This document shows positions 29,037 through 30,260 of a DNA stretch of 64,000 nt, piece after piece. Each line of letters starts with the position of its first letter. Positions within the stretch are counted from its first letter, which is position 1. Position numbers and translations under genes: made by a program. The DNA comes from Crocosphaera sp. UHCC 0190 (GTDB lineage: Bacteria; Cyanobacteriota; Cyanobacteriia; Cyanobacteriales; Microcystaceae). A model generated the notes under the pieces. The model ran no database searches, had not been told where the DNA came from, and saw only the letters and a list, made by a program, of their open reading frames with translations. The DNA lies in contig NZ_JAYGHP010000010.1 of the NCBI RefSeq assembly GCF_034932065.1, positions 1-64,000 on the forward strand. Direction: 5' to 3'.

Positions 29037-29304
29037 GGTATATCCTCCCTATCTGCTTATCTTATTTCCCTGGCGTGGTCTTTTAACCGTCAGTCAAAAG
29101 TCTATCAGAGTCGGGGATCTCATTGAAATCTTGGCTAGAAGTGGTTGGGTAAATTTTTCGATCATTTTGCCCAATTTTGCCATTTTATACCCCAAAAATC
29201 CCGATTAAATCTTTTCTTAATTATTTTTAAGGGCTTGTTAATTCTCCCAAAATTTATCAGCAAACATCTTAAGTTATATTTCCTTGACATTTATCGATAA
29301 AACG

Positions 29305-29318
29305 GTAACAATAGATAC
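29305..29318 (+). promoter_or_regulatory. perfect NtcA box, probably repressing
   Basis: The sequence GTAACAATAGATAC fits GTA-N8-TAC exactly. A TTGACA at 29284-29289 would serve as a -35 element, which places the box over the -10 and start region instead of at -41. That position suggests repression by NtcA under nitrogen starvation, the arrangement known for the gif genes of Synechocystis. Transcription would begin about 29315-29325, just before the riboswitch. Confidence 0.75.
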
Positions 29319-29329
29319 AGAAACTAAAT

Positions 29330-29403
29330 CGTTCATCTTTCAAGTTTTCCTGTCTGGGAGGTTGAAGGACGGAAGTAGGGAACTTTCCCGAAGGAACGCG
29401 CCT
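29330..29403 (+). promoter_or_regulatory. glutamine riboswitch (glnA RNA motif)
   Basis: The aptamer shows P1 CGTTC (29330-29334) pairing with GAACG (29394-29398). A second helix is built from CTTTCAAG...TTGAAGG, with an inner CCT/AGG pairing. P3 is GGGAA/TTCCC (29378-29388). The conserved junction strings GGACGGAAGTAGGG and CCCGAAGGAACGCGCC match the glnA motif as I remember it. The ribosome-binding site GGAGG (29431) follows 28 bases later. CCTAC at 29401-29405 could pair with GTAGG in the aptamer and may be part of the switch. The ligand is glutamine by family knowledge. Confidence 0.88.
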
Positions 29404-29443
29404 ACCGATCACCATCACAGTCCATTACTCGGAGGCAAGAACG

Positions 29444-29746
29444 ATGAAACTTAATTATCGTGGTGTCGAATACGAATACAATCCCCCTAGGGTAGAATTT
29501 TCTCCCATCGATATCAATAGTCAAGAACTTGATTGGCGGTTCCGTAATCAAAATACATCGGTTGCACACCAACCGAAGGTTAATTTGACTTGGCGGGGTG
29601 TTAAATACGACAATAACCCTACTACTGAAGGCAATGTTAAACAAAAGTCTCGCTGGTTGATGTTGCGTCGTCAACAAAAACAATTTGATCGCGCTGGTTC
29701 AATGCACATTCGTTTAGCTAATGAAATTGGTCTAACGCAAGCTTAA
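29444..29746 (+). CDS. DUF4278 repeat protein with IF7/IF17-like C-terminus; candidate glutamine synthetase inactivating factor
   Basis: A 100-residue basic protein. It has two DUF4278 motifs, KLNYRGVEYEYNPP (residues 2-15) and NLTWRGVKYDNNP (about 47-59). The last 30 residues, RWLMLRRQQKQFDRAGSMHI then RLANEIGL, resemble the helical GS-binding part of IF7/IF17 as I recall it (RxLMxR...SMxxRxAxEIG). The regulatory region is an NtcA box plus a glutamine riboswitch, as known for gifB. I therefore propose a gifB-type inhibitor of GlnA. A strong GGAGG lies before the ATG. Certainty about DUF4278 is high, about the inhibitor role moderate. Confidence 0.8.
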   Translation: MKLNYRGVEYEYNPPRVEFSPIDINSQELDWRFRNQNTSVAHQPKVNLTWRGVKYDNNPTTEGNVKQKSRWLMLRRQQKQFDRAGSMHIRLANEIGLTQA

Positions 29747-29769
29747 TGTCAACAACAACTATATATTGT

Positions 29770-29822
29770 TGCCAGAGCGGGGGAAGTTTAGCAGAAGTCT
29801 AGCTTCCCCATTGGCATTTTTT
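29770..29822 (+). terminator. intrinsic terminator of the gifB-like gene
   Basis: Outer TGCCA/TGGCA and inner GGGGAAG/CTTCCCC pairings, with a TAG/CTA step between, form a strong stem followed by TTTTTT. It lies 24 bp past the stop codon, so the riboswitch-controlled transcript is probably monocistronic. Confidence 0.75.
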
Positions 29823-29894
29823 AACAAGAAATATCAAGAAACTTAAGAATACACTTATGCTAATATTTCGGAACGAGAATTAGGTAAGTTAGCT

Positions 29895-30260
29895 ATGAAA
29901 TTCGCTCTAGTTAGTCAAGATTTCCAAACAATTACCGGAAAAACTGGCCGCGCCAGGAAATTTTTGGTATATGAAGCGAGTCAAGAAACCCAACCAACCC
30001 TGATTGAAAAGTTAGAAATTCCTGACACTCAACCCACTTTTCATGATCTGCATGATGATGATATCACACCTCATCCTTTGGATCATAGTATTTTAATTAC
30101 AGGAGAGGCTGGAGAGGGTTTAACTGAACGTTTGAGTCGTCGCGGCATCACTCTTTATATTACCACTGAAACTGACCCTTTGATCGCCATTAATGGTGTA
30201 ATAAAAGGCAATATTTCTACGATAGCACCCACACCCCATAAAGATGATGGTAGTTGTTAA
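29895..30260 (+). CDS. NifX/NafY-like dinitrogenase cofactor-binding fold protein
   Basis: A 121-residue protein resembling the Nitro_FeMo-Co domain. It begins with strand KFALVSQDFQTITGKTGRAR and ends with ITGEAGEGLTERLSRRGITL and DPLIAINGVIKGNI, where the domain's typical G-x-G-x-x-x-L-x-x-x-G-I pattern is seen. The family includes NifX and NifB C-terminal domains, but stand-alone members also exist in organisms without nitrogenase. HDLHDDD and TPHPLDH could bind metal. It follows the riboswitch gene but is separated by a terminator. Confidence 0.7.
   Translation: MKFALVSQDFQTITGKTGRARKFLVYEASQETQPTLIEKLEIPDTQPTFHDLHDDDITPHPLDHSILITGEAGEGLTERLSRRGITLYITTETDPLIAINGVIKGNISTIAPTPHKDDGSC

What the first reader, a model, noticed from the sequence alone, without database searches (positions are those of the whole stretch)
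29284..29746. NtcA box plus glutamine riboswitch in front of a DUF4278 protein with an IF7/IF17-like tail
Seen in the sequence: TTGACA, a perfect GTA-N8-TAC, then the full glnA RNA motif (P1 CGTTC/GAACG, GGACGGAAGTAGGG, CCCGAAGGAACGCG), then a 100-aa protein with two DUF4278 motifs. Known: in Synechocystis the glutamine synthetase inactivating factor gene gifB is repressed by NtcA and carries a glutamine riboswitch. Inferred: this gene is the gifB-type factor here, formed by fusing DUF4278 repeats to an IF7-like helical tail (RWLMLRRQQ...SMHIRLANEIG). If right, DUF4278 would have a role in glutamine synthetase control.
Basis: partly seen in the sequence, partly recalled or inferred. Interest (0 to 1): 0.85.

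Follow-up and report, generated by a model that had tools for sequence, protein, structure and literature searches.

The report
Short-tailed glutamine-synthetase inhibitor gene (gifB type)
This is a cyanobacterial gene that senses glutamine through its own messenger RNA and makes a small protein that very probably switches off glutamine synthetase; the system is already known, but here the inhibitor keeps only the first half of the known inhibitor domain.

Summary
Window 29328-29402 is a type 1 glutamine riboswitch (Rfam RF01739, 52.7 bits). It lies behind a TTGACA-n17-AACAAT promoter with a perfect NtcA box over its -10, and leads a 100-aa protein with N-terminal DUF4278 and a C-terminal IF7-like helix. 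The tail matches the NCBIfam IF7 model (E=6e-5, below its curated cut-off) and an independent IF17-tail profile (24.3 bits; best of 4,909 shuffles 12.3). It keeps three arginines in the spacing of IF7's. What differs is the tail. It stops after the first half of IF7, and 41 of the 80 nearest homologues share this short form, so it is a stable architecture rather than a broken gene. It is best called a short-tailed gifB. The survey also turned up something I could not find in the held literature: the same riboswitch precedes DUF4278-PirA fusions (7 loci) and 'mini-IF' + pirA gene pairs (9 loci, one in this genome). Glutamine may therefore also set the level of PirA, the PII-binding regulator of arginine synthesis. 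GS inhibition by the short form is inferred, not shown.

The parts
29284..29312 (+). Predicted promoter: -35 TTGACA (29284-29289), 17-nt spacer, -10 AACAAT (29307-29312); predicted start of transcription about 29319
   Evidence: Consensus scan, 10 of 12 matches; same -35/-10 geometry in the closest homologue L154 although the spacer sequence differs
29305..29318 (.). NtcA box GTAACAATAGATAC overlapping the -10; centre about 7.5 nt before the predicted start, a repressor position
   Evidence: positional conservation 11 of 13 against 0.32 expected; Synechocystis gifB has its NtcA site at -7.5 (PMC6316151)
29328..29402 (+). Type 1 glutamine riboswitch aptamer (RF01739)
   Evidence: cmscan 52.7 bits, E=9.8e-9
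29400..29408 (+). Anti-Shine-Dalgarno GCCUACCGA next to the P1 3' strand (expression platform)
   Evidence: Pairs with UCGGAGGC in the fold and duplex, -13.2 kcal/mol; the helix is kept in L154
29429..29436 (+). Ribosome-binding site within UCGGAGGC
   Evidence: sequence
29444..29746 (+). CDS, 100 aa: short-tailed IF17/GifB-type protein
29444..29608 (+). DUF4278 domain (residues 1-55, with YRG and WRG repeats)
   Evidence: PF14105, 56.7 bits, E=3.1e-15
29636..29737 (+). IF7 first-half helix (residues 65-98), with R70, R83 and R90 at the IF7 arginine spacing
   Evidence: NF052599 E=6e-5; custom tail HMM; invariant R70, R83, R90; AF2 helix 65-95, pLDDT about 93 over residues 71-90
29769..29824 (+). 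Probable transcription terminator, TGCCA..GGGGAAG..CTTCCCC..TGGCATTTTTT (approximate limits)
   Evidence: Read by eye; not reported by the scan, whose loop limit is 8 nt

Best explanation
The locus is a short-tailed gifB gene, a glutamine-synthetase inactivating factor. When nitrogen is scarce, NtcA bound over the -10 blocks transcription. When nitrogen is plentiful NtcA leaves, the mRNA is made, and glutamine binding to the leader aptamer frees the ribosome-binding site from the GCCUACCGA/UCGGAGGC helix, so the protein is made only when glutamine is already high. The C-terminal arginine-rich helix then binds glutamine synthetase I and inactivates it, while the DUF4278 half stabilises the protein. 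Shown here: promoter/NtcA/aptamer/SD layout, domain homology, conserved arginines, presence of glnA and of a separate full-length gifA. Inferred from Synechocystis: NtcA repression, glutamine switching, GS binding, and the stabilising role of DUF4278. Inferred only: that the first half of IF7 is enough for inhibition.
For: Riboswitch. NtcA box at the same place as in other gifB-type genes and, by predicted start, at the -7.5 of Synechocystis gifB. DUF4278. IF7 model match; IF17/IF7-tail profile score 24.3 bits for the window tail against a maximum of 12.3 in 4,909 shuffles. R70, R83 and R90 are the only invariant arginines of the tail in 11 sequences, and R-x12-R-x6-R is present in 76 of 79 tails of the nearest homologues. 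Three arginines are essential in IF7 (PMC6316151). 41 of 80 homologues have the short tail, 77 an aptamer motif and 70 an NtcA box upstream. SD/anti-SD pairing is stronger than permuted pairings in 93 leaders, 0 of 5000 as good. The genome has glnA with an NtcA box and full gifA.
Against: The IF7 model match is far below its curated cut-off (23 against 70 bits) and covers only positions 3-36 of 66. IF17's K102, linked to high affinity, aligns with D82 here. The genome also has a full IF7 and a mini-IF, so this gene could be redundant or altered in function. No binding or expression data. How ligand binding at P1 opens the adjacent SD helix was not modelled.
Confidence: 0.78

Rival explanations
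1. The protein descends from IF17 but no longer inhibits GS effectively; having lost half of the IF domain it acts as a weak modulator or competitor, and gifA IF7 (with the riboswitch-led mini-IF) does the work.
For: Tail covers only model positions 3-36 of 66; K102 equivalent lost; 11 of 12 other genomes with this short form carry a full IF7 over the cut-off.
Against: The three arginines needed for GS binding are kept in 76 of 79 tails, NtcA box and riboswitch are kept, and half-length IF units recur on their own: mini-IFs and tandem short gifA-like ORFs in G127.
Confidence: 0.14
2. The tail binds another partner (for example PII or another nitrogen enzyme) rather than GS.
For: The same DUF4278 + riboswitch chassis carries a different effector, PirA, in seven loci, so the chassis alone does not prove the target.
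Against: This tail matches IF7 and not PirA in the family search, and the other short-form loci match the IF profile and not the PirA profile.
Confidence: 0.06
3. The IF7 resemblance is a chance likeness of an arginine-rich helix.
For: Low absolute scores; no PDB relative found.
Against: No shuffle comes near the real score; intermediate homologues bridge to full IF17, e.g. L165 at 57 bits over model positions 4-52.
Confidence: 0.02

Closest known systems
IF17 / GifB of Synechocystis sp. PCC 6803 (sll1515)
   Same: DUF4278 N-terminal half, IF7-like C-terminal half with three arginines, NtcA site over the core promoter, type 1 glutamine riboswitch in the 5'UTR (PMC6316151)
   Different: 100 aa instead of 149; tail ends after the first half of IF7, without the IQGK...YDRS part; no lysine at the K102 position; SD/anti-SD sequence is a variant (GCCUACCGA/UCGGAGGC instead of CGCCUC/GAGGCG)
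IF7 / GifA
   Same: First 36 residues of the model align, including the three arginines
   Different: IF7 is a full 65-aa protein without DUF4278 or riboswitch; this genome has its own copy at G000:C3:329690-329887 with a GTAACATTTGCTAC box
DUF4278 proteins behind glutamine riboswitches in marine picocyanobacteria (e.g. PMM1846)
   Same: DUF4278 and glutamine riboswitch control
   Different: Those carry no IF tail; type 2 riboswitches described there (PMC6316151)

Membership tests
Glutamine riboswitch, type 1 (RF01739) | Covariance-model score above the gathering threshold | tested here: met
   52.7 bits against 35
Glutamine riboswitch, type 1 (RF01739) | Glutamine-dependent control of a downstream gene | not testable with these tools
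   SD sequestration predicted; switching not measured
IF17/GifB | N-terminal DUF4278 moiety | tested here: met
   PF14105 56.7 bits against 25.3
IF17/GifB | C-terminal moiety homologous to IF7 over its full length | tested here: not met
   Only positions 3-36 of 66 match; profile positions 7-43 of 72; no remnant of the rest seen in the three frames after the stop
IF17/GifB | Three conserved arginines needed for GS interaction | tested here: met
   R70, R83, R90 invariant in 11 sequences; same spacing in 76 of 79 homologues
IF17/GifB | NtcA site over the core promoter in a repressing position | tested here: met
   Perfect box over the predicted -10, position conserved; binding not measured
IF17/GifB | Binds and inactivates glutamine synthetase I | not testable with these tools
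   glnA is present in the genome; no interaction data
NCBIfam IF7A equivalog (NF052599) | Score over the curated cut-off of 70 bits | tested here: not met
   23.2 bits; it is not an IF7 orthologue, and the genome's IF7 scores 126.7

The most novel reading that the evidence does not exclude
DUF4278 is a shared N-terminal carrier used with two unrelated small inhibitors, the IF7 half-helix (target GS) and PirA (target PII), and one glutamine riboswitch class controls both, either as DUF4278 fusions or as mini-IF + pirA gene pairs. Glutamine would then coordinately brake ammonium assimilation and interfere with PII-dependent activation of arginine synthesis. The roughly 36-residue first half of IF7 would be the minimal GS-inhibiting unit.
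Probability: 0.6. Interest if true: 0.62.

Novelty: new variant of a known kind. Interest (0 to 1): 0.42.

Why it matters
The window gene shows that roughly half of the nearest gifB-type genes (41 of 80) code for only the first half of the known GS-inhibiting domain, which points to a minimal inhibitor that can be tested with a short synthetic protein. The wider survey ties PirA to the glutamine riboswitch and offers an identity for the 'N-terminally extended PirA' proteins that the PirA discovery paper (PMC8092223) left as possible false annotations: they would be DUF4278-PirA fusions preceded by a glutamine riboswitch. I did not check the two strains named in that paper.

Tried and rejected
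Decoy-P1 switch: in the window the P1 5' strand AUCGUUC can pair with GAACGAU spanning the start codon (minimum-energy fold). The nearest homologue lacks this decoy and keeps only the SD/anti-SD helix, and it is not a feature of the other leaders, so I dropped it. | Truncation by frameshift or recent stop: rejected, because no IF7 second-half remnant follows the stop and 41 of 80 homologues share the short form. | Solved structures: no relative of the window protein or of IF7 in the PDB copy, so no structural test of GS binding. | Whole-leader fold energy is not unusual (z=-0.41), so evidence for the RNA rests on the covariance model and conservation. | The primary riboswitch paper (Klahn 2018) is not held; its content is taken from the review PMC6316151. 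| AF2 models the DUF4278 half with low confidence (pTM 0.33), so no fold search was run.

Full report
WHAT IS THERE. The window carries, on the + strand, TTGACA (29284) - 17 nt - AACAAT (29307) with the perfect NtcA box GTAACAATAGATAC at 29305-29318 over the -10, a glutamine riboswitch at 29328-29402 (RF01739, 52.7 bits, the only gathering-level RNA family in 64 kb), and an ATG at 29444 opening a 100-aa protein. Residues 1-55 are DUF4278 (E=3e-15). Residues 65-98 match NCBIfam GS_inact_IF7A over model positions 3-36 of 66 (E=6e-5, 23 bits, cut-off 70).

IS THE IF7 TAIL REAL. I built a profile from the C-terminal parts of 20 riboswitch-led full-length IF-type proteins plus this genome's own GifA, leaving the window out. 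It finds the window tail, and the tail scores 24.3 bits against at most 12.3 bits in 4,909 scored shuffles. In an alignment of eleven DUF4278-IF proteins the only invariant arginines of the tail are R70, R83 and R90, at the spacing of three arginines in GifA (positions 8, 21 and 28 by my count; that these are the mutated residues is from memory). Three conserved arginines are each essential in Synechocystis IF7 (PMC6316151). AlphaFold2 with 49 sequences gives one confident helix, residues 65-95, pLDDT about 93 over residues 71-90.

SHORT FORM. A scan of one genome per species gave 80 kept homologues, the closest at 61% identity in Cyanothece sp. BG0011. Of these, 41 have the short tail, 38 the full IF7-like tail and one no recognised tail; 77 have the aptamer motif upstream and 70 a perfect NtcA box; R-x12-R-x6-R is present in 76 of 79 tails. 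Rfam confirms the aptamer in all ten of these loci that I checked. The short form is therefore an established architecture. Eleven of the twelve other short-form genomes searched also have a complete IF7.

REGULATION. Across 101 riboswitch loci (the window, two more in this genome and 98 others), a perfect GTAN8TAC lies within 120 nt upstream of the aptamer in 13 of 20 full gifB, 11 of 13 short gifB, 7 of 7 DUF4278-PirA, 0 of 11 mini-IF and 1 of 17 membrane-protein loci; the shuffle expectation is about 0.01-0.03 per locus. In the leaders the P1 3' strand is followed by an anti-SD that pairs with the SD (mostly CGCCUC/GAGGCG). In 93 leaders the real pairings average -12.3 kcal/mol against -10.9 for permuted partners, and none of 5,000 permutations does as well. 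The window uses a variant helix, GCCUACCGA/UCGGAGGC, kept in its closest homologue. With Synechocystis gifB as the tested model (review PMC6316151), this reads as NtcA repression plus translational activation by glutamine. The switching itself was not shown here.

WHAT IS KNOWN ALREADY. [quoted passage not shown] A 2024 paper lists gifB homologues simply as DUF4278 genes.

WIDER CONTEXT. The genome has GifA (126.7 bits, C3), glnA with an NtcA box, and three glutamine riboswitches. The second riboswitch (C1:446382-446439) leads a 56-aa mini-IF without DUF4278 followed 13 nt later by PirA (78.9 bits, cut-off 50). The third (C25) leads a 74-aa membrane protein. In the survey, mini-IF is followed by pirA at 9 of 11 loci, all nine PirAs over the NCBIfam cut-off, and seven riboswitch-led DUF4278 proteins end in PirA, four over the cut-off. 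The PirA discovery paper mentions N-terminally extended PirA versions as possible misannotations and mentions the glutamine riboswitch only in its reference list. I found no held paper linking PirA to this riboswitch; subscription papers and preprints were not searchable. Co-transcription of mini-IF and pirA is inferred from distance and orientation only.

Noticed in passing
G000:C1:446382-446801 (L037:2483-2914): Glutamine riboswitch, 56-aa mini-IF without DUF4278, then PirA 13 nt downstream; the same order recurs in eight other genomes (L044, L050, L058, L060, L069, L071, L075, L103).
   Followed up: yes
L063, L085, L088, L089, L113, L117, L120: DUF4278-PirA fusions behind a glutamine riboswitch and an NtcA box: a likely identity for the N-terminally extended PirA proteins noted in PMC8092223.
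   Followed up: yes
G000:C1:447070-447732 (L037:3171-3833): A 60-aa DUF4278-only gene with the same GTAACAATAGATAC box but a leader without a recognisable aptamer, followed by a 141-aa PirA-like protein (43.7 bits, below cut-off).
   Followed up: partly
G000:C8:138059-138277 (L039:2560-2778): 72-aa protein made of two tandem IF7-first-half repeats; homologues in 28 of 120 genomes of the order, including three of genus g2, to which Synechocystis salina appears to belong. Target unknown.
   Followed up: partly
G000:C25:29642-29983 (L038) and 16 survey loci such as L096, L105, L119: A family of about 70-75-aa small membrane proteins led by glutamine riboswitches, nearly always without a perfect NtcA box; no significant Pfam or NCBIfam match for the members scanned.
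   Followed up: partly
L065, L087, L100, L121; L057, L083, L094, L095, L116; L068, L080: Further riboswitch-led small proteins of unknown family: about 40-50-aa single-helix '...SPxLCWVL...' proteins, 59-64-aa '...FDLWA...' proteins and about 94-aa proteins.
   Followed up: no
window 29895-30260: 121-aa NifX-like / dinitrogenase iron-molybdenum cofactor domain protein (PF02579, 24.4 bits, just under the cut-off) downstream on the same strand.
   Followed up: partly
L155:1032-1466: Two consecutive glutamine riboswitches, each in front of a DUF4278 gene; the first gene lacks an IF tail, the second is a short gifB.
   Followed up: partly
G127:C6:1876020-1877041: A full gifA followed by four short ORFs (53-66 aa) each matching only the first half of IF7, in tandem.
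   Followed up: no
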